Virus record (IMG/VR): IMGVR_UViG_3300023257_000083
Span: 1 to 30,373 of that record
Source of the DNA: a virus
Length of the DNA: 30,373 nucleotides
Strand: one strand, 5' to 3'
Position numbers and translations under genes: made by a program. Of the stretch, positions 896 through 29,216 are shown in pieces (position 1 is the stretch's first letter; every line of letters starts with the position of its first letter). The notes under the pieces were generated by a model that made no database searches, was not told the origin of the DNA, and saw only the letters and a list, made by a program, of their open reading frames with translations.

Positions 896-1924
896 TCATG
901 AATTATTGGAAATAATCTTATCTATTATGAATAATTTAATTTTTTCATATTCATTGTCCCATTGTTCTTCCCAAATATGATATAATTTTATTCCTTTTTT
1001 TAATGCTTTTCTTGATTTAGAAAAATGATACCCAGGAAGTTTATATTTTTCAGAATGCCAATAAGTACCATTAAATTCAAATCCTAAATTAATATCTGGT
1101 AACAAAATATCTATTTCTTTCCCATCTAATATCTTTCTGTCAGAGGTAATAATTTTTCCATTATAATTTTCTTTAATAAAATCAAACATTTTAATTTCTT
1201 TACCAGATTTATGAGAATTTATAGGATTACAATTAACACACATTTCAACATTGTATTTTAATCTACAATAAAATGTTTTTTCACATATTTCATATATTTT
1301 ATTACATTTATCACATTTTATATAAAAAATTGTACCATCTCTCATTAAAAAATTAAATTGATGTTTATTAAATAATTGAAATTTTTTAATTGAAATTTTT
1401 AATTTTATCTGTTCATTTTGTGCAGGTCTTTTAACTCCATATCTTTTTAAATTAGTTGTTTCTTGTTTTTTTAATTGTTCTTTATTTTGTAAATGATAAT
1501 CAACTCCATAATGTTTCTGAGTTGTTTTTATAGATTTTTCTTTTATTTCTTCTAATTGAAAAATATTATCAACTCCATATTTTTTTTTAATTGTTTTCTT
1601 TAATTTATTGTAAATTTCTTTACTTTGTAATGGATACTCAACTCCATATTTTTTTAGATTAGTTTTTTTATTTTTAATTGAAGAACATTTTCTACAAGTA
1701 TAAAAATTATATTTGTTGTAATTTTTATAATATTTTTGAATTGATAAATTTGTTTCTTGTCCACAAATAGCACAAATAGCAGTTATTCTTTCTTTTGAAT
1801 TATGATTAATATCTTCAATTTTTATTAAATATTTTTTATTAAATTCTTCAAATTCATATTTATCAATATATTGATTTTTGTTTCTGTGTGTAATATTTAT
1901 TTTTACCTCTTTTTCTTTCATCAT
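896..1924 (-). CDS. EDxHD/Vsr-like homing endonuclease with YGV repeats
   Basis: A 342-residue free-standing homing endonuclease that would cut a specific DNA site to spread itself or a linked intein. Order of parts: a Cys4 zinc knuckle (C51, C54, C77, C80); four repeats of about 22 residues around 'KKYGV-x4-Q-x2-E' (YGV at 93, 116, 139, 162), a DNA-binding repeat common in phage homing proteins; a second knuckle (C204, C207, C229, C232); then a Vsr-like nuclease core with GKEIDILLP (268-276), GFEFNGTYWH (281-290), H300 and YHIWEEQW (315-322). Its C-terminal core fits the EDxHD family (I-Bth0305I), first described beside fractured, split-intein genes. It is divergent to the terminase C-half with intein C-part, 71 bases away. 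A late-type promoter box lies at 1932-1943. The frame is intact. Confidence 0.85.
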   Translation of the reverse strand: MMKEKEVKINITHRNKNQYIDKYEFEEFNKKYLIKIEDINHNSKERITAICAICGQETNLSIQKYYKNYNKYNFYTCRKCSSIKNKKTNLKKYGVEYPLQSKEIYNKLKKTIKKKYGVDNIFQLEEIKEKSIKTTQKHYGVDYHLQNKEQLKKQETTNLKRYGVKRPAQNEQIKLKISIKKFQLFNKHQFNFLMRDGTIFYIKCDKCNKIYEICEKTFYCRLKYNVEMCVNCNPINSHKSGKEIKMFDFIKENYNGKIITSDRKILDGKEIDILLPDINLGFEFNGTYWHSEKYKLPGYHFSKSRKALKKGIKLYHIWEEQWDNEYEKIKLFIIDKIISNNS

Positions 1925-1931
1925 TATAATC

Positions 1932-1943
1932 TATATATTAAAA
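1932..1943 (-). promoter_or_regulatory. Late-promoter-like box before the homing endonuclease
   Basis: Minus strand TTTTAATATATA followed by GATTATAATG, 8 bases before the ATG at 1924. Confidence 0.5.
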
Positions 1944-1962
1944 TTGTAATTGATGATGAATT

Positions 1963-1975
1963 TTTTAATATATAA
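1963..1975 (+). promoter_or_regulatory. Late-promoter-like box before the terminase C-half
   Basis: TTTTAATATATAA, 20 bases before the ATG at 1996. The C-part of the intein and terminase therefore has its own promoter, as a separately made fragment would need. Confidence 0.6.
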
Positions 1976-1995: not shown

Positions 1996-2433
1996 ATGAC
2001 TAAATATTTGAAGAATATAATCATTTTTCTTATTCAATTAATAGAAAAATATGAATTCAGAAATATAGATAAAAATGAAATAGATTTATTAAAGAAAATT
2101 GTTGATATTATTCCATTAAAAAATAAATCAGTTAAATCAGATTATGGATTTACTCCAACAAGTGAAATTATTAGAACTATTCCACTACAAAGATATGAAC
2201 TTGAATTAGAAAATGGAAATAAGTTAGAATGTGCTGATACACATATAGTTTATTGTAAAAATCATATTGAAAAATTTGTTGTTGATTTGACTAAAAATGA
2301 TTATGTCTTAACAAATACCGGAGAAAATAAAGTGAAACATATTAAAAAATTAAGAGGTAAATTATCTATGTTTGATTTAACAATTGATGGTCCAGAACCA
2401 TCATATTATGGTAATAATATACTGAATCACAAC
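1996..2433 (+). other. Intein C-part, 146 residues
   Basis: Visible splicing blocks: block B ELENGNKLECADTHIVY with H83; a turn NDYVLTNTGENKV (101-113); block F SMFDLTIDGPEPSYYGNNIL (124-143); block G LNHN followed by Thr147, with the penultimate His145 and terminal Asn146 needed for Asn cyclisation. The usual block B Thr is Ala here, a change seen in other phage inteins. Block A is absent and lies in the other half. About 45 residues of helical, Lys/Ile-rich sequence precede the first Hint strand and may help the parts associate. No endonuclease domain is present. Confidence 0.88.
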
Positions 2434-4278
2434 ACAGTTTCTGCATCAATTGTATTATTACATTTTGTATTATTTAATAATGAAAAAAATTGTATGATTG
2501 TGGCCAACAAAGGGAAAACAGTAAAAGAAATTATTAGAAAAATAAAAGAAATTTATAAAACATTACCATTTTTCTTAAAAAAGGGAGTAATAAATTGGAA
2601 TGAAAAATCATTAGCTTTAGAAAATGGGAGTAGAATTCAAAGTGAAAATAGAGTAAAAGAACCATCAATTGGATTTACAATTGATTTACTCTACCTCGAT
2701 GAATTTGCAAAAGTACCAAATAACATTATTGAATCATATTATGGTGCTGTTATCCCAACTGTTTCATCAGTAAAAAATTCTAAAATTATAATTACTTCTA
2801 CACCATTAGGTTATAATTTATTTCATAAATTATTAACAGATGCAGAAAGAACTGAGGATGATCCAGAAAAGAATATGTATGAGGCAATGCGAGTTTATTG
2901 GCATCAAGTAGCGGGTAGAAGAGATGTGAGAATATTTCCATTAGCATATAAAATGAAAGAATATAAAATAACTCAGGAAGAATTAATTGAATTTTTACAT
3001 ATTCAAAGATTTAATATTTATAATGAAGAATTTAATAATAAAAATTGGATATGTGTAAAACATGATTTAGATAATGATAAAACATATATACATAGAATTA
3101 GAGGAATGAGAATAAACATAAATGATAAAATGGTTCCTTTAAATGATTTATGTATCATAACAAATTGGCAAGAAGAAGAAACTAAATTAATTGGTGGAGA
3201 AAATATGTTTAATCAGGAATATGATCTTCAATTTATTACTAGTGATAAATTATTATTTACAAGTGAACAAATGGAGAAATTTAAGAAAGATTCAATAGAT
3301 TTTAAACATATAGATTTTAAAGAATTAAATAAACGGTTAATTCTTCCATATAACAATTTAAAATGGTTAACTGGTAAGAATGATATATTTGATCCAACAA
3401 AGATAAAAGATTATCACATTTTTGCGGCAATTGATTTGGGGGAAGGTTTGGCACAAGATTATTCTGTCTTAAATATTTTTAGATTATTACCAAAACCTCC
3501 AGATTTAATAGAAAAAACTCATGATGAATTATCTACTATTTATGAATTCTTTTATTTAGAACAAATAGGTATGTTTAGAGTTAATAATTGGAGTATTAAT
3601 GAATTTGCAGAATTATGTTATACTGTATTATTTGAATTATTTGATTCTGAAAAAGTAAAAGTAGTTCTTGAATATAATACATATGGTGCGACTTTATTAT
3701 CTGAATTAATTCATATATTTAATGATGATAATAATTTTTCAAATGCTATATTTTTAAGATATAAACATAAGAAAGATGATAAATATGCAAAAGTTGGAAT
3801 GAAAATAACTGGTGGAGAACAAGAAGCAAGTAAAAAATTATTAGTTAAAGCATTACAAGGTGCTGTTAAAAAACAAATGATAAAATTAAGAGAAAATGTA
3901 AATATTACTGAAATTTCAAAATTTAGTAAAACTGAAACTCCAAGTGGAAATTTCACATATAAATGCTCGGGGGGGCACGATGACTGTGCGATGACACTAG
4001 TTGGATTATCTTCAATATTTAATCATGTTCAGTATAAAAATATGATTGATGATTTATTTGAAAAATTAGAATTACCTATTAAACAATTAATTGAAAAATA
4101 TGTTTTTAATAAAAAAGGAGATGATAAAGTTGATTATTCAACTACTTTAAATAATAGGGAAAAAATATATAATTTTAAAGATAAAAAAGAATTAGGAAGA
4201 TATAGTAAAATTAAAAATAAAAGATTTACTCCTTATAAACCTAATCCTTGGGACAACAACTATAAATTTAAAAGGTAA
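1996..4278 (+). CDS. Split intein C-part fused to terminase large subunit C-half
   Basis: A 760-residue precursor of the DNA-packaging motor (T4 gp17 family). Residues 1-146 are the C-part of a split intein; residues 147-760 are the C-extein. The extein starts with the Thr that completes the Walker A motif, whose SRQTGK lies at the end of the N-extein at 26409-26924. It then carries Walker B LLYLDEF (231-237, D235/E236), ITSTP (266-270), and the RNase H-like nuclease acids D480 (AAIDLGEG), E559 (VVLEYN) and D662 (GGHDDC). Compared with T4 gp17 there is an added stretch of about 70 residues near 315-390 between the ATPase and nuclease. After trans-splicing, terminase would be 116 + 614 = 730 residues, a normal size. 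The start is the only ATG that keeps the whole intein C-part and is preceded by a late-type promoter. Confidence 0.9.
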   Translation: MTKYLKNIIIFLIQLIEKYEFRNIDKNEIDLLKKIVDIIPLKNKSVKSDYGFTPTSEIIRTIPLQRYELELENGNKLECADTHIVYCKNHIEKFVVDLTKNDYVLTNTGENKVKHIKKLRGKLSMFDLTIDGPEPSYYGNNILNHNTVSASIVLLHFVLFNNEKNCMIVANKGKTVKEIIRKIKEIYKTLPFFLKKGVINWNEKSLALENGSRIQSENRVKEPSIGFTIDLLYLDEFAKVPNNIIESYYGAVIPTVSSVKNSKIIITSTPLGYNLFHKLLTDAERTEDDPEKNMYEAMRVYWHQVAGRRDVRIFPLAYKMKEYKITQEELIEFLHIQRFNIYNEEFNNKNWICVKHDLDNDKTYIHRIRGMRININDKMVPLNDLCIITNWQEEETKLIGGENMFNQEYDLQFITSDKLLFTSEQMEKFKKDSIDFKHIDFKELNKRLILPYNNLKWLTGKNDIFDPTKIKDYHIFAAIDLGEGLAQDYSVLNIFRLLPKPPDLIEKTHDELSTIYEFFYLEQIGMFRVNNWSINEFAELCYTVLFELFDSEKVKVVLEYNTYGATLLSELIHIFNDDNNFSNAIFLRYKHKKDDKYAKVGMKITGGEQEASKKLLVKALQGAVKKQMIKLRENVNITEISKFSKTETPSGNFTYKCSGGHDDCAMTLVGLSSIFNHVQYKNMIDDLFEKLELPIKQLIEKYVFNKKGDDKVDYSTTLNNREKIYNFKDKKELGRYSKIKNKRFTPYKPNPWDNNYKFKR

Positions 4279-15351: not shown

Positions 15352-16263
15352 ATGAAACAAGAAACAAAAGACAATTTAAAAGAAATAAAAGATTTTTTAG
15401 ATAAAAATAAAGTAGAATACAATACAGAATTAAATAATTTTTGTTTATGGCATGACCATCCAGAGGGGAAAAGATCATATGAAATAGAATATATTGATTC
15501 ATTAAATTATCCTATTGCATACCCAAAATATAAAATTGAAGGAGTAAATAAAAATTATTACTATGATAAATCGTTTGAAGCTGAACAAAATAATTCTTTT
15601 AAACTTTGGATTAAAGATTTTGAATGGGATAATCCAAATAAGAAAGATGTTTTAAAATCATATATTTTACACGCTGCTCACAAAACGCCCAATAAATTTT
15701 ATGCAAGAGATTGTGAAGTTAGAGTAGTTGAAAGTAAAGAAGCCAGGGCATTTGAAAAAGAAAATTGTTTCTATGGTAAAAGAGGAGCAAGTTTAAATTT
15801 AGGATTATATCTTAAAAAAGATAAAAATGATGTTTCAGCTGGTACATTAATTATGTTATATACATTTGGTAAAAACTTCTTTGGTAAAAAAGACAATATC
15901 ATTGAAATTATCCGTGTAGGGACTAAGAAATTTTCACATGTTAATGGTGGATCTTCTAAACTTTTAAAACATTTTATTACAAATTATAAAAATATTACTA
16001 TCGGGAAAAATGATATTAAAGTAGAACACATTAAATTTTATTCAGATTATGATCATAATTTAGGTGATAGTATGAATATGTTAGGATTTGAATTTATAGG
16101 TTATACAAAAGGAGGTTTTATGAATTATTGGGTTAAAACTGGTGAAATAAAAAATAGACAACCAATGAAACATAAATGGGTTATGGAACAAATGGCTCAA
16201 GGTGAAGTTTATGCTATTCCTAATGCTGGAGTAAAAACTTATATTTTAAATTTAGTTGATTAA
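15352..16263 (+). CDS. Homing-associated (Hef-like) GNAT-type protein
   Basis: A 303-residue protein. Conserved stretches include ARDCEVRVVE (118-127), FYGKRGASLNLGLYL (140-154), LYTFGKNFFG (169-178), IIRVGTKKFSHVNGGSSKLL (186-205), FYSDYDHNLGDSMNMLGFEF (228-247) and IPNAGVKTYI. The 'GG-S-SKLL...SDYDHN-x-G-x-SM-x-x-LGF' pattern resembles a domain found with homing endonucleases of T-even and other large phages (Hef-like), and has a GNAT-like look. No nuclease motif is obvious. A dead homing endonuclease and an IS605-like end follow it, so it is probably part of a mobile-element cluster. A free-standing acetyltransferase is the alternative. Confidence 0.5.
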   Translation: MKQETKDNLKEIKDFLDKNKVEYNTELNNFCLWHDHPEGKRSYEIEYIDSLNYPIAYPKYKIEGVNKNYYYDKSFEAEQNNSFKLWIKDFEWDNPNKKDVLKSYILHAAHKTPNKFYARDCEVRVVESKEARAFEKENCFYGKRGASLNLGLYLKKDKNDVSAGTLIMLYTFGKNFFGKKDNIIEIIRVGTKKFSHVNGGSSKLLKHFITNYKNITIGKNDIKVEHIKFYSDYDHNLGDSMNMLGFEFIGYTKGGFMNYWVKTGEIKNRQPMKHKWVMEQMAQGEVYAIPNAGVKTYILNLVD

Positions 16264-22701: not shown

Positions 22702-23055
22702 ATGATAGAACATTTAACAAAAGAAACTTTTAAAGAAAAAATATTTGATTTTGAGACAGAAAAAGAATGGAAATTTAAAGGTATAATGCCTTGTGTAATA
22801 GACTTTTATGCTGAATGGTGTAACCCTTGTAAAGTTATTGCTCCAATATTAGAAGAATTAGAAAAAGAATATGGTAGTAAACTTAACATATATAAAGTGA
22901 ATACAGAAGATGAGCAAGAATTAGCTACAGCATTTGGTATTAGAAGTATTCCATCAATATTATTTATTCCACAAATCGGGGATCCCCAAATGGTACAAGG
23001 AGCTTTACCAAAAGAATCATTTAAAAAAGTTTTTGAAGATATTTTAAAAATTTAA
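22702..23055 (+). CDS. trxA: Thioredoxin
   Basis: A 117-residue thioredoxin, which reduces disulfides, for example in ribonucleotide reductase. Active site WCNPC (39-43), where Asn replaces the usual Gly; cis-proline P84 in GIRSIPSILFIP (79-90). The stretch NIYKVNTEDEQELATAFGIR (62-81) and the ending QGALPKESFKKVFEDIL are very close in style to thioredoxins of Bacteroidota, pointing to the host lineage. It has a host-type promoter and a palindrome upstream. The CNPC change may alter the redox potential. Confidence 0.93.
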   Translation: MIEHLTKETFKEKIFDFETEKEWKFKGIMPCVIDFYAEWCNPCKVIAPILEELEKEYGSKLNIYKVNTEDEQELATAFGIRSIPSILFIPQIGDPQMVQGALPKESFKKVFEDILKI

Positions 23056-23721
23056 TGCAGTAGTTCAATTTTCCCTTTCATAATATTTTTAAAAGATGTT
23101 TTATTTCCAGTAATATGATCTTTCACAATCCCGGATTTAAGATTATATGTTCTTCTGTTTTTATTATTCTTTATTTGTTTATTTCTAATTGAAGAATAAT
23201 TTGAAGAATTTTTCTTTTTTTCTTTATTCTTTATCCTTTTCTTTAATTCTGCAAGAGCATCTTTTTTATTTTTATGTTGATTTCTTCCATCTATTCTAAC
23301 TTCAATACCAGATGGATTATGTCTCACAACTACACAAGAATTTGTGACATTTTTATGTTGTCCCCCTTTTCCAGTGCCTCTTGTATAAAATACATCAATT
23401 TCACTTAAATCTAATTCTATATTAATATCTTGTTTTTCATTAAGAATTGCTACTGACACTGTAGAAGTATGCACACGACCTTTGGATTCTGTTGGGGGAA
23501 CTCGTTGAAATCTATGAGCTCCTATTTCATTTGAGAAGAATTGTTTAATATTATTACCGCTAAAGACAGAAATCAACGATTCCATCTCTCTCAGTTAAGG
23601 AAAGAATTTTAAAACCATTATTTTTAATAGTTTTTAAATAAATGTTTTTCATTTCTTGGACAAGAAGTTTAGCATCTTCACCACCTTCTTGGTCTCTAAT
23701 TTCGATTACTATCTTTTCCAT
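23052..23721 (-). CDS. RF1-type release factor lacking domain 1, +1 frameshift needed
   Basis: Frame 0 runs from the ATG at 23721 to TAG at 23562-23560 (53 codons): MEKIVIEIRDQEGGEDAKLL... DGIVDFCL. The +1 frame continues exactly at the next conserved residues, SGNNIKQFFSNEIGAHRFQR, and ends at 23052, giving 222 residues. The joined protein has the RF domain-2 start (EIR-x-x-EGGEDA), the RF1-type PxT loop PPT (75-77) in RVPPTESKGRVHTST, and the catalytic GGQ (119-121) in RGTGKGGQHKN, then a basic tail. Domain 1 (about 100 residues of normal RF1) is missing. The PxT motif predicts UAA/UAG reading. It converges with thioredoxin, overlapping by four bases. It could free stalled ribosomes or boost termination at UAG/UAA. 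Confidence 0.85.
23559..23565 (-). promoter_or_regulatory. Putative programmed +1 frameshift site CTT TAG C
   Basis: Minus strand CTT TAG C. Skipping T gives CTT AGC, Leu-Ser, the residues expected at this place in the RF alignment. Bacterial prfB uses CTT TGA C in the same way. No Shine-Dalgarno-like stimulator is seen just upstream, in keeping with the likely host. Confidence 0.6.
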
Positions 23722-23752: not shown

Positions 23753-24010
23753 TTATATATTTAATATTCTTTTTAGTTTTATTTCTCTTTCAACTTGATT
23801 TGTAACATTATCAAAAAATTTTGAAAATATACTATTTATATCAAATATCTGTTTAATATTATCATCATCAATTAAATAATATTTAATACGTGAAATACTT
23901 GAATATGTGTGAACAATTTTATATATCTTATCAATTGTTAACATCTTAACATACAAATTAAAATTCTTGTGTTCTAACAATCTATTACTACATTTAAAAT
24001 ATTTAATCAT
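23753..24010 (-). CDS. SH3-like array member 1
   Basis: An 85-residue small protein. Shares with its neighbours the core 'L-T-x-[GD]KIYK' (LTIDKIYKIVHTYSSI, 24-39), a DDN turn (49-51), a phenylalanine-rich middle and the tail VEREIKLKRILNI. The pattern is that of a small SH3-like beta barrel plus a basic C-terminal helix. No function is known. It is the last of a minus-strand tandem array that ends here. Confidence 0.6.
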   Translation of the reverse strand: MIKYFKCSNRLLEHKNFNLYVKMLTIDKIYKIVHTYSSISRIKYYLIDDDNIKQIFDINSIFSKFFDNVTNQVEREIKLKRILNI

Positions 24011-24024
24011 TATTCTAATATTTT

Positions 24025-24309
24025 TTATTTTAATATTCTTTTTATTTTTTTTTCTTTATTCTTGTTAATACAATCATTATCTTGATAAATAAAACTACAA
24101 TTAATTGTGTCTTTTATTGTTTTTAAATAGAAAAAAGGATAATTAAATTTAACATAATATAACAAATCTCCCCAAGAATTTTTACCATATCCAATTATTT
24201 TCATACATATAGAATTATTTTTAACATATTTAAAATGTAGTAATTCTGGCATAAAACCTGATTTTATTTTTATATATTCTCCAATTTTATATTTTTTCAT
24301 CTTTTTCAT
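24025..24309 (-). CDS. Array member 2, different body with the same tail
   Basis: A 94-residue protein starting MKKMKKYKIGEYIKIKSGFM, also beta-like but not clearly a paralog of the others. It ends NKEKKIKRILK, the shared tail. Its start lies inside the end of the neighbouring gene (23-base overlap), implying coupled translation. Confidence 0.5.
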   Translation of the reverse strand: MKKMKKYKIGEYIKIKSGFMPELLHFKYVKNNSICMKIIGYGKNSWGDLLYYVKFNYPFFYLKTIKDTINCSFIYQDNDCINKNKEKKIKRILK

Positions 24310-24526
24310 CTAATATTCTTTTTAGTTTTATTTCTCTTTCAGCATCTATAAAAAATTTACCAAAATTGGAATTTTGTGTAAAATATTTTTCAATATTATT
24401 ATCATCTTTTATATACCAATAAATTGAAACTTTTTTAATTATTTTATATATTTTCCCAATAGTTAAATTTTCATAATACATTTTTGTTGCATCGGAATAA
24501 TTATTAATACATTTTAGATATTTCAT
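24287..24526 (-). CDS. SH3-like array member 3
   Basis: A 79-residue paralog: MKYLKCINNYSDATKMYYEN, then LTIGKIYKIIKK (21-32), DDNN turn and AEREIKLKRILDEKDEKI. The tail is lengthened by a few residues that overlap the next gene's start. Function unknown. Confidence 0.6.
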   Translation of the reverse strand: MKYLKCINNYSDATKMYYENLTIGKIYKIIKKVSIYWYIKDDNNIEKYFTQNSNFGKFFIDAEREIKLKRILDEKDEKI

Positions 24527-24539
24527 TTAATCATATATT

Positions 24540-24785
24540 TTATTTTAATATTTTTATTAAAATATTTTTTCTACAAAATTTGGTAGTTACATCAATTGTT
24601 AAATTTTCATCAAAAATAGATTTTTCCCAAAAAATAATTCTAAAATTACTATCATCTAATAAATACCATTTATTTTTCTTAATTTTAATAGCTTTATATA
24701 TTTTTCCCAAAGTCAAATTAGTCAAATTATGTGACGGAGTGTGTGGATTAGAAATATATTTTAAATATTTGACATCTTTATTCAT
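24540..24785 (-). CDS. SH3-like array member 4
   Basis: An 81-residue paralog with the core LTLGKIYKAIKIKKNKWYLL (24-43), a DDSN turn, then FCRKNILIKILK, a degraded form of the shared tail. It lies 14 bases from the next member. Function unknown. Confidence 0.6.
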   Translation of the reverse strand: MNKDVKYLKYISNPHTPSHNLTNLTLGKIYKAIKIKKNKWYLLDDSNFRIIFWEKSIFDENLTIDVTTKFCRKNILIKILK

Positions 24786-24791
24786 ATATCT

Positions 24792-25031
24792 TTATTTAAT
24801 ATTTAATATTTTTTTAAGTTTTTTTTCTCTTTCAACTTGTATATTTATGAAAAGTCCATCAATATTAGAATTTTCTTGAAAATGTTTTTTAATATTATAA
24901 TCATTATATATCATCCACCAATTGTCATCATTAAAGTCATATATTTTATATGCTTTATATATTTTTCCAACAGTTATTTGATTATAGTTAGGATAAACAC
25001 ATTTTAAATATTTGATATCTTTATTTTTCAT
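24792..25031 (-). CDS. SH3-like array member 5
   Basis: A 79-residue paralog, MKNKDIKYLKCVYPNYNQIT then VGKIYKAYKIYDFNDDNWWM (21-40), ending VEREKKLKKILNIK. It overlaps the stop of the dead member upstream. It is the clearest version of the family consensus. Confidence 0.6.
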   Translation of the reverse strand: MKNKDIKYLKCVYPNYNQITVGKIYKAYKIYDFNDDNWWMIYNDYNIKKHFQENSNIDGLFINIQVEREKKLKKILNIK

Positions 25032-26149: not shown

Positions 26150-26364
26150 GAGTTTTTCATCATCACTGTCCCATATAATCAAAATTTCATACCCTTCTGA
26201 TTTTGCTATTCTTATCTTTCTTTATCTTTATCCCATATATTTTTATATTCTTGACTTGTTATATTATGATGTTTTAAATACCTACCATAAATTCTACTGA
26301 CTTTTTCCCCACATACTTTACAAATAATATAATTAATCCCTTCTATTTGTGTTTTATTTTCCAT
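26144..26364 (-). pseudogene. Homing endonuclease remnant beside the terminase N-half
   Basis: Start MENKTQIEGINYIICKVCGE, then KVSRIYGRYLKHHNITSQEY and a stop at 26212; a second frame to 26144 reads AKSEGYEILIIWDSDDEKLL. The first piece is the Cys-x2-Cys, 'GR-x-LK-x-HN-[IL]-TS-x-EYK' start, and the second the 'EGYE-[IV]-L-x-IW-[ED]-S' end, of one phage homing endonuclease family. The central nuclease is deleted. It lies 45 bases downstream of the intein N-part on the same strand, where a free-standing endonuclease is expected in a fractured intein gene. Confidence 0.75.
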
Positions 26365-26408: not shown

Positions 26409-26924
26409 TTAAGATAATTTCATATATAATCTATATAAAAATATTTTTGATTTTTCTAATATAGATAATCGTCTTTCTTGTCTTATTATATCATAGTATA
26501 ACTCATAAAATGGTATAGAATATGTGTCTTTTGTCTCTTCATTTAATACTAATACCCTGGTACTGAACGAGTTGCATTTACCCGTTTGCCTGCTTGCCAT
26601 TAATATAGAAAATCTATTTTTTGTATAAAGATCAATAATATCTTTTTGATAATCTCTTAATTTCATATGTCCTATTGTACCGTCTTCCCTTTTGATTTGA
26701 CAATACGACTGTGCAAAATAATGAACACTCATTTTACATTTAGCATATTCTGTTATTTCTTTATTAGTCATAGCGAATGTTAAATCAGTTTTTCTTACTC
26801 CTTTAATATTATTGAACCATAATTTTTCATGATTTTTTAATTTTTCACCCATATTTGCTCTATGTTCAATCTCTTTTACTCGTTTTGTTGTTAAAATTAA
26901 ATTTTCTTGTTTTTTATTAGCCAT
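26409..26924 (-). CDS. Terminase large subunit N-half fused to split intein N-part
   Basis: A 171-residue precursor. Residues 1-116 are terminase N-extein: a helical region, then MKLRDYQKDIIDLY (87-100), the Q motif-like adenine-binding segment, and FSILMASRQTGK (105-116), all of Walker A but its last Thr. Cys117 begins the intein N-part, which ends with the protein. The missing Thr is the first C-extein residue at 2434-2436. The extein halves join without gap or overlap to give SRQTGKT, matching T4 gp17 SRQLGKT. The half lies about 22 kb from, and on the opposite strand to, its partner. Neither half alone can bind ATP. Confidence 0.9.
   Translation of the reverse strand: MANKKQENLILTTKRVKEIEHRANMGEKLKNHEKLWFNNIKGVRKTDLTFAMTNKEITEYAKCKMSVHYFAQSYCQIKREDGTIGHMKLRDYQKDIIDLYTKNRFSILMASRQTGKCNSFSTRVLVLNEETKDTYSIPFYELYYDIIRQERRLSILEKSKIFLYRLYMKLS
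26412..26576 (-). other. Intein N-part, 55 residues
   Basis: Block A: CNSFSTRVLVLNEE with Cys1, followed by SIPFYELYYDI and a Lys/Arg-rich helix (RRLSILEKSKIFLYRLYMKL). Block B is absent and lies in the C-part, so the break is early, as in the atypically split AceL-TerL intein, rather than at the usual endonuclease position. Unusual, GC-richer codons surround the junction. Confidence 0.87.
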
Positions 26925-27050
26925 TCTTATTTATTATTTTTATTATTTTTACATATGTAAACAAATATCATTTAAAATCTTATATTTATATGAATATGAA
27001 TATGCTCCACCACAATTTAATCTAAAATCTGTTTTATTTTTATATTTTGT

Positions 27051-27122
27051 TGCTTCTTTTTGACATTTTTCTTTAGTCCAATAATTTTTTGGTTTATTTA
27101 TTTCAATCATATGAGAACAAAT
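27051..27122 (+). repeat. 72-bp direct repeat, copy 1
   Basis: Perfect match to 27637-27708. It encodes the repeat junction of the endonuclease (ICSHMIEINKPKNYWTKEKC). Confidence 0.85.
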
Positions 27123-27636
27123 TTCATCTTTCCAATTATTTCTTAATGCACTTGAGTATGCAGAAGAATTCCCATTAATAAAATCTATTTTATATTTATA
27201 TTTTAAAGCTTCATTTTGACATTTTTCTTTAGTCTCCACCAATACCCCCTGTTTTTGCTTTATTTAATATAACGAATTCATTATTTTTAAAATAATTTAC
27301 AAAATATTTTTCTTTGTTAATTGCATCATTAATTGATATATAATCTATTAATTGTTTAAAAACAGGAATTATTTTTGTTTTTTTCATAAATTTAAAAACT
27401 GTGCTTCTTTTGTCTATTAAATGTTCTTGTTTTCTTTTATAAAAATTAAAAGTTAACCCAACATATACATATTTTATATATTTATATTCAAATATAACTG
27501 AATATATACATCTCATTTTTCTATTTCCAAGAATTTTCATATGAGAACAAATATCATTTAACCATTTTTTATTATATGATATAATATATGCTGAAGAAGA
27601 CTTTTTATGAAAATCTTGTTTGTGTTCATATTTTAA

Positions 27637-27708
27637 TGCTTCTTTTTGACATTTTTCTTTAGTCCAATAATTTTTTGGTTTATTTATTTCAATCATATGA
27701 GAACAAAT
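27637..27708 (+). repeat. 72-bp direct repeat, copy 2
   Basis: Perfect match to 27051-27122, 586 bases away. Recombination between the two would delete the GIY-YIG core. Confidence 0.85.
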
Positions 27709-27829
27709 ATCATTTAAAATTTTATTTTTTCCAGATATCTTATAAACATATGCAGATTTAAATTTAAAATCTTTTCTTGTATTATATTTTAATGCTTCTT
27801 GATGACATTTTTCTTTAGTCCATTTTTTA

Positions 27830-28501
27830 TTAGCCATTTTTATTCATTAATTTTTTTATTTTATTTATAAATGAAATATTCATTAAATAATATTCATCAC
27901 ATTTAAATGATATTTCTGATGTCTTTACTGGAATTCCTTTATTTTTATATTCTAATACATTAGTCAAAAAATATTTTAATACATCATCATCTAATTCAGT
28001 AAAAATACTTTTTTTTGGTAAAAATAAATTTGACCCCCTTTTAGTGTAGTCCCTAGGATTATATTCTATATTTTTATATGTAAAATCAAATACCCCTTGA
28101 TAAAATATTTTATCAACATTTTCATATAAATCATAAATTTTATTTGAATAAACATATTCATATTTTCCTATGGGTAAAAAAATATAATTTTCTGCATAAA
28201 TTCCAATTTTTTCCCAATAATTTTCATCTTGAGTAGTAAAAACCCCATTTCTAACTTTCCATCCAAATAATTTTAAAAACAAATCATTTAATTTATTATG
28301 GATATTTATCGGAGTATTTGATGGTTTTCTATCTTTTATTGTTTTTTCTCTGACCATTTGTTTATCAAATGGTTCATCATTTGATGCACGATATATTATA
28401 TCACCTTTCCAATTTTCAAAAAAATATTTACAATTTTCAAATATTAATTTTAATTGACCATCAGTTATATTTTCATTAAGATAATTATTATATTTTTTCA
28501 T
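27830..28501 (-). CDS. ADP-ribosyltransferase-like protein 1 with leader
   Basis: A 223-residue protein. The leader MKKYNNYLNEN (LNE) is followed by a body with IIYRAS (R38, 35-40), DRKPSNTP (58-65), LFGWKVRNGVFTT (78-90), YIFLPIGKYEYVYSNKIYDL (106-125) and ISFKCDEYYL (197-206). The order Arg strand, [ST]-T-[ST]-like strand and a late acidic strand fits an ART fold as in T4 Alt, but the usual ExE is not clear (CDEYY instead). If right, it would modify host proteins or RNA after ejection. It is adjacent to, and 14 bases overlapping with, a paralog. Confidence 0.45.
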   Translation of the reverse strand: MKKYNNYLNENITDGQLKLIFENCKYFFENWKGDIIYRASNDEPFDKQMVREKTIKDRKPSNTPINIHNKLNDLFLKLFGWKVRNGVFTTQDENYWEKIGIYAENYIFLPIGKYEYVYSNKIYDLYENVDKIFYQGVFDFTYKNIEYNPRDYTKRGSNLFLPKKSIFTELDDDVLKYFLTNVLEYKNKGIPVKTSEISFKCDEYYLMNISFINKIKKLMNKNG

Positions 28502-29216
28502 TAATTTTTTTATATTTTTTCATTAATTTTTTTATATCATATTCAAAATTTCTATTTATTAAATAATATTCATCACAATTAAATGATATTTCATTTTCAT
28601 CAATTGGATAATCTTCATCTTTAAATTCTAATTGATTTTTAAAAAAATCAACTAAAAAAGGTAAATCATTTTCATATTTTTTAAGAAATGAAGAACCATA
28701 CATATTTGATATATGATGAATAATTTTTGGAAATACTTCTTTTTCAGTTTTATTTATTTTTTCATACATTTCTTTATTAATCAAATATTTAATATCATCT
28801 AAAATAAAATCTGTAGTTAAATCAAAAATTTTATTAGAATATACATATTCAAATTTTCCAATAGGTAAAAAAATATATGCATAATCAGTTTTATTGTTAA
28901 ACCCACTATAAAGTTCAGGATTAGTATCAAATGTTGTAAATACTCCATTTCTTACTTTCCAACCAAATAATTTTTCAAATATTTTATTTAAAATATTATG
29001 ATATTTTATATTAGTTGACATAGGAATTCTGTTTTTTCTACGTCTTATTTTTCTAAAATTAATATTTATATCAGATTGAAATCCTCTATATATTATATTA
29101 CTTTCCCAATTATCAAAAAAATATTTACAATTATTTTGAATTTCTTCTAATTTCTTATTAGGAAATTCAAATTTATCATATTCATTTATAATTTTAAAAT
29201 TATTATATTTTTTCAT
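28488..29216 (-). CDS. ADP-ribosyltransferase-like protein 2 with leader
   Basis: A 242-residue paralog of the preceding gene. The leader is MKKYNNFKIINE (INE). Matching blocks: IIYRGF (R44, 41-46), LFGWKVRNGVFTT (83-95), YIFLPIGKFEYVYSNKIFDL (114-133) and EISFNCDEYYLIN near 216-228. Between them the sequences are strongly diverged, so this is an old duplication. Its C-terminus is extended by a 22-bp tandem duplication (28491-28534). The ART assignment is tentative, as for its partner. Confidence 0.45.
   Translation of the reverse strand: MKKYNNFKIINEYDKFEFPNKKLEEIQNNCKYFFDNWESNIIYRGFQSDININFRKIRRRKNRIPMSTNIKYHNILNKIFEKLFGWKVRNGVFTTFDTNPELYSGFNNKTDYAYIFLPIGKFEYVYSNKIFDLTTDFILDDIKYLINKEMYEKINKTEKEVFPKIIHHISNMYGSSFLKKYENDLPFLVDFFKNQLEFKDEDYPIDENEISFNCDEYYLINRNFEYDIKKLMKKYKKINEKI
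28491..28534 (+). repeat. 22-bp tandem duplication at a gene junction
   Basis: TATTTTTTCATTAATTTTTT plus TA, present twice in perfect tandem. It spans the end of one ART-like gene and the start of the other and makes them overlap. Confidence 0.8.

What the first reader, a model, noticed from the sequence alone, without database searches (positions are those of the whole stretch)
896..1975. Live EDxHD endonuclease next to the intein C-part
The gene 71 bases from the C-half encodes a Vsr-like EDxHD endonuclease. That family was described as the free-standing endonuclease linked with fractured split-intein genes (Dassa et al. 2009). Here the two genes are divergent, each with its own late-type promoter. 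It may be the homing partner that maintains the split intein and could target the uninterrupted terminase P-loop codons.
Basis: partly seen in the sequence, partly recalled or inferred. Interest (0 to 1): 0.75.

Follow-up and report, generated by a model that had tools for sequence, protein, structure and literature searches.

The report
Homing nuclease beside split terminase gene
A virus gene for a self-spreading DNA-cutting enzyme really does sit beside one half of a split, protein-spliced DNA-packaging gene, but the split piece's own partner enzyme looks like a different one, now a broken remnant next to the other half, and the two halves have been carried far apart in this genome.

Summary
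Window 896-1924 (-) encodes an intact 342-aa protein (here ED1) whose C-terminal domain has the EDxHD/Vsr nuclease fold. It starts 71 bp from the divergent C-half of a split terminase (TerL). Both genes have their own promoter-like TTAATATATA box. The adjacency recurs: ED1-type genes lie just 5' of the intein C-part in 17 of 76 split-TerL lineages and beside none of 21 uninterrupted ones. The reading of ED1 as the intein's homing partner aimed at the P-loop is not supported. ED1 belongs to a very common free-standing family, differs between near-identical inteins, and lies in both orientations. The nuclease that co-varies with this intein is a second EDxHD/Vsr family (ED2). All 80 ED2 loci fetched touch a TerL intein half. 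In the window, ED2 survives only as an internally deleted remnant behind the N-half (26153-26364). The N- and C-halves are at least 8 kb apart (24 kb within the contig) and on opposite strands; in other fractured TerL loci the gap is 0.1-4.6 kb. A second dispersed clade includes the 735-kb phage LR756501. Best reading: ED1 is an independent homing endonuclease that colonised the C-half border of a fractured gene that was also being physically dispersed.

The parts
896..1924 (-). ED1: intact 342-aa EDxHD/Vsr-fold endonuclease gene (phrog_3339, DUF7487)
899..1213 (-). ED1 catalytic domain, residues ~238-342 (D272, E283, H290 invariant)
1367..1675 (-). four YGV repeats (residues ~84-186), presumed DNA-binding modules (DUF7487)
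1685..1774 (-). Cys-pair motif C51/C54...C77/C80, possible zinc-binding fold
   Evidence: invariant cysteines; zinc binding inferred
1932..1941 (-). TTAATATATA promoter-like box of ED1, 17 nt upstream of its ATG
1965..1974 (+). TTAATATATA promoter-like box of the C-half gene, 31 nt upstream of its ATG
1996..2433 (+). IntC: C-part of the split intein (146 aa, ends HN before T+1)
2434..4278 (+). TerC: C-terminal extein of terminase large subunit
26577..26924 (-). TerN: N-terminal extein of terminase, ends in Walker A ...SRQTGK
26412..26576 (-). IntN: N-part of the split intein (55 aa, starts Cys)
   Evidence: 81% to L007 IntN
26153..26364 (-). ED2 remnant: N-terminal finger joined to the last ~22 residues of the second EDxHD/Vsr nuclease, frameshifted, catalytic core deleted
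   Evidence: tblastn E=1.6e-17 and 1.2e-5 to L007 ED2
27229..27837 (-). GIY-YIG-like homing endonuclease gene upstream of the N-half (a truncated copy of its modules at 26949-27242)
   Evidence: (below cut-off, E=0.007)

Best explanation
ED1 is a free-standing homing endonuclease. Its N-terminal Cys motif and four YGV repeats would bind DNA, and its C-terminal EDxHD/Vsr domain would cut it. It spreads on its own by cutting alleles that lack it, probably near the 5' border of the intein C-part, and being copied in by repair. The border of a fractured terL is a protected seat, because losing flanking sequence would harm an essential gene whose halves are rejoined by protein trans-splicing. The intein's own mobility partner in this family is ED2, which sits behind IntN. 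In the window's lineage ED2 was deleted to a remnant, ED1 settled divergently beside the C-half, the C-half carried its own promoter box, and a rearrangement moved the halves far apart. Shown: fold, recurrent position, ED2 remnant, separation of halves, promoter-like boxes. Inferred: cleavage, target site, splicing, order of events.
For: Fold and family. Position: 17/76 split lineages have ED1 within 600 nt 5' of IntC, 3 have it 5' of TerN, 1 has it 3' of TerC; 0/21 continuous. In the seven lineages with both nucleases, ED1 was never found on the IntN side of ED2. Independent re-colonisation: TerL-adjacent ED1s fall in several tree clades; 11 co-directional, 6 divergent; L021 versus L029 differ by 0.09 in IntC but 1.07 in ED1. 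ED2 as partner: all 80 ED2 loci touch a TerL intein half; ED2 co-varies with the intein given TerL; a VSR nuclease of this type lies between the N- and C-intein of split polB in phage Aes517. ED2 remnant in the window. Dispersal derived at least twice in the TerL tree. Own promoter box 5' of IntC in the window, LR756501, L330, L021-25, L098 and L193, and in no locus with an intact co-directional nuclease upstream.
Against: No cleavage data and no target site was identified. The IntC-side preference could partly reflect the geometry of the gap. Over 16 lineages ED1 does co-vary with the intein (partial r=0.51, p=6e-4); this vanishes only after removing two distant lineages. Lineages in the census are not phylogenetically independent. 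The location of the N-half rests on the window contig alone.
Confidence: 0.55

Rival explanations
1. One reading: ED1 is the homing partner of the split intein. It cuts uninterrupted terL at the P-loop codons and so spreads the split intein.
For: ED1 linked to split rather than continuous TerL; EDxHD fold; sporadic intein presence among near-identical TerLs and a DNA-identity dip at the insertion site in intein+/intein- pairs, suggestive of co-conversion; all-lineage covariation with IntC.
Against: ED2, not ED1, fills the gap in most lineages and tracks the intein. ED1 is exchanged between near-identical inteins and occurs in both orientations. With halves dispersed, one cut could not carry both intein parts.
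Confidence: 0.12
2. Permissive-site model: the fracture gap is simply one of few tolerated insertion sites beside an essential gene, and the very common ED1 genes land there without site specificity.
For: Unrelated non-nuclease genes also occupy gaps (L020, L012, L017, L029); ED1 family is ubiquitous; phage HEG islands beside essential genes are described (PMC10448857).
Against: 17:3:1 bias to the 5' side of IntC, IntC side in all seven loci with both nucleases, and none beside 21 continuous terL genes.
Confidence: 0.2
3. ED1 acts mainly in competition during co-infection: it cuts rival phage terL or intein alleles so that the resident packaging locus is inherited preferentially, with or without homing.
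For: Co-localisation of HEGs with essential genes and exchange boundaries (PMC10448857); ED1 under purifying selection.
Against: Not tested; no rival allele or cleavage data.
Confidence: 0.13

Closest known systems
Fractured genes with split inteins (Dassa et al. 2009, doi 10.1093/nar/gkp095; cited through PMC10448857 and PMC6892783)
   Same: Essential phage gene broken by a split intein, with a nuclease gene between the halves in relatives.
   Different: In the window the halves are far apart and on opposite strands; the partner nuclease is a remnant; another nuclease sits divergently at the C-half.
EDxHD homing endonuclease I-Bth0305I (3R3P) and Vsr endonuclease (1CW0)
   Same: Catalytic fold (Z 12.9 and 12.1), D/E/H core residues.
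   Different: DNA-binding part is four YGV repeats (DUF7487); not in an intron; target unknown.
Split PolB intein with 'VSR endonuclease' in Aeromonas phages Aes517/Aes123 (intein studied in PMC11923092)
   Same: Nuclease of the ED2 type between N- and C-intein.
   Different: Other host gene, halves adjacent.
Known TerL split inteins (GOS TerL, discussed in PMC10189870; AceL-TerL, from memory)
   Same: Split intein in a phage terminase large subunit gene.
   Different: Not compared residue by residue here; the window's parts are 55 + 146 aa.
Dispersed split DnaE of cyanobacteria (from memory)
   Same: Halves of one protein encoded far apart and joined by trans-splicing.
   Different: Chromosomal gene without a nuclease remnant; here phage and intermediates are visible.

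Membership tests
EDxHD homing endonucleases (I-Bth0305I type) | EDxHD/Vsr catalytic fold | tested here: met
EDxHD homing endonucleases (I-Bth0305I type) | conserved catalytic residues in order | tested here: inconclusive
   D272, E283, H290, K303 invariant; mapping to the named E-D-x-H-D positions not checked because Taylor 2011 is not in the library
EDxHD homing endonucleases (I-Bth0305I type) | site-specific cleavage and homing | not testable with these tools
   needs protein and crosses
DUF7487 / phrog_3339 free-standing phage homing endonucleases | profile match over YGV repeats and nuclease | tested here: met
Nuclease partner of fractured genes (Dassa 2009 family) | lies between the intein halves of the fractured gene | tested here: not met
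   window ED1 lies outside any N-C gap; halves separated. Met for ED2 in relatives
Nuclease partner of fractured genes (Dassa 2009 family) | sequence family of Dassa 2009 | not tested
   paper not held; gp41-1 fractured loci carry a GIY-YIG-like gene instead (read from sequence)
Split intein (TerL) | Cys1, terminal HN and +1 nucleophile, two separate genes | tested here: met
   C1, HN and T+1 read from sequence
Split intein (TerL) | trans-splicing activity | not testable with these tools
   needs expression

The most novel reading that the evidence does not exclude
The locus is a snapshot of a selfishly fractured essential gene turning into a stably dispersed, trans-spliced gene: two different EDxHD families mark the two borders (ED2 at the N-half, ED1 at the C-half), and nuclease-linked recombination at these borders, followed by capture of a separate promoter for the C-half, carried the halves apart independently in at least two phage clades.
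Probability: 0.3. Interest if true: 0.65.

Novelty: new variant of a known kind. Interest (0 to 1): 0.5.

Why it matters
Fractured genes are thought to arise from a split intein plus a nuclease in between. This family offers a graded series: uninterrupted terL, continuous intein, fractured with ED2, fractured with ED1 or both, nuclease-free, and dispersed. It lets one test how a selfish break becomes permanent, whether nucleases drive the physical separation, and which of two EDxHD families moves the intein. It also adds natural TerL split inteins whose halves are expressed from separate sites.

Tried and rejected
Dassa 2009 and Taylor 2011 could not be read. gp41-1 fractured loci were scanned to see whether they carry ED1 or ED2: neither. 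Rfam found nothing in the window or L005. A scan for contigs overlapping the right end of the window found none. Misassembly as the cause of the separation: rejected for the C side (three other assemblies, 5.0 kb upstream of IntC without TerN), not excluded for the N side. ED1-intein co-evolution: absent with 8 lineages, present with 16, lost on removing two far lineages. Co-conversion signal at the insertion site: suggestive only. ED1 insertion point by comparison of sisters L016/L032: too diverged to place to the base.

Full report
What is there. The window is an IMG/VR virus fragment of 30,373 bp with 21% G+C. Gene 896-1924 (-) encodes a 342-aa protein, ED1. It matches phrog_3339 'homing endonuclease' (E=6e-49) and Pfam DUF7487 over its YGV repeats. 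A profile of 50 homologues matches the I-Bth0305I chain 3R3P (E=1.8e-5). The AlphaFold model (pLDDT 92) superposes from residue 238 onward on I-Bth0305I (Z 12.9, rmsd 2.5, 97 residues) and on Vsr (Z 12.1, rmsd 2.5, 104 residues). D272, E283, N285, G286, W289, H290, Y299, H300 and K303 are invariant. dN/dS against the nearest homologue, L008, is 0.29/0.68. The frame is intact, so 'live' is plausible but untested.

The split terminase. Gene 1996-4278 (+) is IntC (146 aa, ending HN) plus the C-terminal terminase. Gene 26409-26924 (-) is the N-terminal terminase up to ...SRQTGK plus IntN (55 aa, starting Cys). The break lies in the Walker A motif. Both halves are closest to L007 and L008.

The halves are not together. 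In 64 split clusters where both halves are on one locus, the IntC start follows TerN on the same strand after 124-4642 nt; a few at the low end are cultured-phage terL genes with an apparently continuous intein. In the window the halves are on opposite strands, about 24 kb apart inside the contig. Three other assemblies support the C side: contig L005 shows 5.0 kb upstream of IntC without an N-half. Going round the outside, the distance is at least 8.4 kb. The genes normally upstream of TerN (29652+, 29246-) kept their order relative to the N-half. The N-half location rests on this contig alone.

Two nuclease families. The gap between IntN and IntC in relatives holds ED1-type genes, a second type ED2 (a ROS/MucR-like finger and a DUF559/Vsr-like C-terminus), or both. 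The ED2 model also matches Vsr (Z 11.5) and I-Bth0305I (Z 10.5). All 80 ED2 loci fetched touch a TerL intein half. ED2 also lies in the TerL gap of the 462-kb phage LR756500 and, annotated as a VSR endonuclease, between the N- and C-intein of split polB in Aeromonas phage Aes517. In Caulobacter phage Cr30 it lies upstream of an uninterrupted terL. In the window, directly behind IntN, a remnant of ED2 remains: its N-terminus (52% to L007, E=1.6e-17) is joined to its last 22 residues (55%, E=1e-5) with the catalytic core gone. So the window's ancestor had the usual ED2 behind its N-half.

Is ED1 the partner? For: 7 of 15 split clusters but 0 of 14 continuous clusters from the TerN scan have ED1 within 3 kb (p=0.006). 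In a wider census of 104 clusters, 17 of 76 split lineages have ED1 within 600 nt 5' of IntC, 3 have it 5' of TerN, 1 has it 3' of TerC, and none of 21 continuous ones do. When ED1 and ED2 share a gap (seven lineages), ED1 is on the IntC side. Against: ED1 is a very common family (875 places in 316 phage records). TerL-adjacent ED1s fall in several clades. Orientation is mixed (11 co-directional, 6 divergent). Near-identical inteins carry unrelated ED1s (L021/L029). ED2 distances follow intein distances beyond TerL (partial r=0.27, p=2e-4, n=52), while ED1 gives r=-0.14 (n=8), 0.51 (n=16) and 0.10 (n=12 without two far lineages plus two fragmentary ones). The window ED1 itself is sister to the ED1 in the gap of L008 (starred), so this particular pair may be inherited with the locus.

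Mobility of the intein. Split, continuous-intein and empty terL alleles are interspersed among close relatives (L035 and L047 carry continuous inteins). DNA identity dips at the insertion site in intein-plus/intein-minus pairs. This fits homing of the intein, but the signal is weak.

Dispersal seen elsewhere. In the 735-kb phage record LR756501 the halves are 12.4 kb apart on one strand, with ordinary genes between and no ED1 or ED2 beside either half. Contig L174 has the same spacer with intact ED2 beside the N-half and an ED1 12 nt before IntC. L302 (11 kb apart) keeps an ED1 tail fused to the gene before IntC. L330 shares the C-half context. This clade is separate from the window's in the TerL tree, so dispersal arose at least twice.

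Promoters. TTAATATATA occurs 13 times, always intergenic, mostly 15-65 nt before a start, against 2.35 in shuffles. It precedes IntC in the window, LR756501, L330, L021-25, L098 and L193, that is, where IntC is dispersed, divergent from its neighbour or next to a broken nuclease. In co-directional loci the nuclease stop abuts the IntC start.

Verdict. The partner claim is not supported by co-inheritance, while the linkage claim is. Most likely ED1 is an independent homing endonuclease seated at the C-half border; ED2 was the intein's partner. The separation of the halves is the more notable feature.

Noticed in passing
26153-26364 (-) and 26409-26924 (-): Remnant of a second EDxHD/Vsr nuclease (ED2) directly behind the N-half of the split terminase.
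   Followed up: yes
window 1996 versus 26412; L056/L064 (LR756501), L174/L227, L302: Halves of a fractured terminase gene physically dispersed, in two clades, one including a 735-kb phage record.
   Followed up: yes
27229-27837 and 26949-27242 (-): GIY-YIG-like gene and a truncated copy of its repeated modules upstream of the N-half; its start (MANKK) and upstream bases resemble those of the N-half gene.
   Followed up: partly
15352-16263 (+): Resembles the C-terminal domain of the long ED1-type homing endonucleases (hits near L017 11086 and L050 5756), here as a separate gene without the nuclease.
   Followed up: no
whole window, e.g. 1941 (-), 1965 (+), 5063 (-), 12505 (+), 15189 (-): TTAATATATA box, 13 copies, all intergenic, likely a phage promoter element.
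   Followed up: partly
L302 8995-9993: A radical-SAM-like gene whose 3' end is replaced by the C-terminal tail of an ED1-type nuclease, just before IntC.
   Followed up: partly
L035 10337-11368, L047 365-1399: Continuous inteins (ORFs with LAGLIDADG-like motifs) at the same Walker A site as the split intein.
   Followed up: partly
23052-23585 (-): Stand-alone release-factor-like domain with a GGQ motif.
   Followed up: no
23753-25031 (-) and 27830-29216 (-): Tandem arrays of small paralogous genes of unknown function.
   Followed up: no
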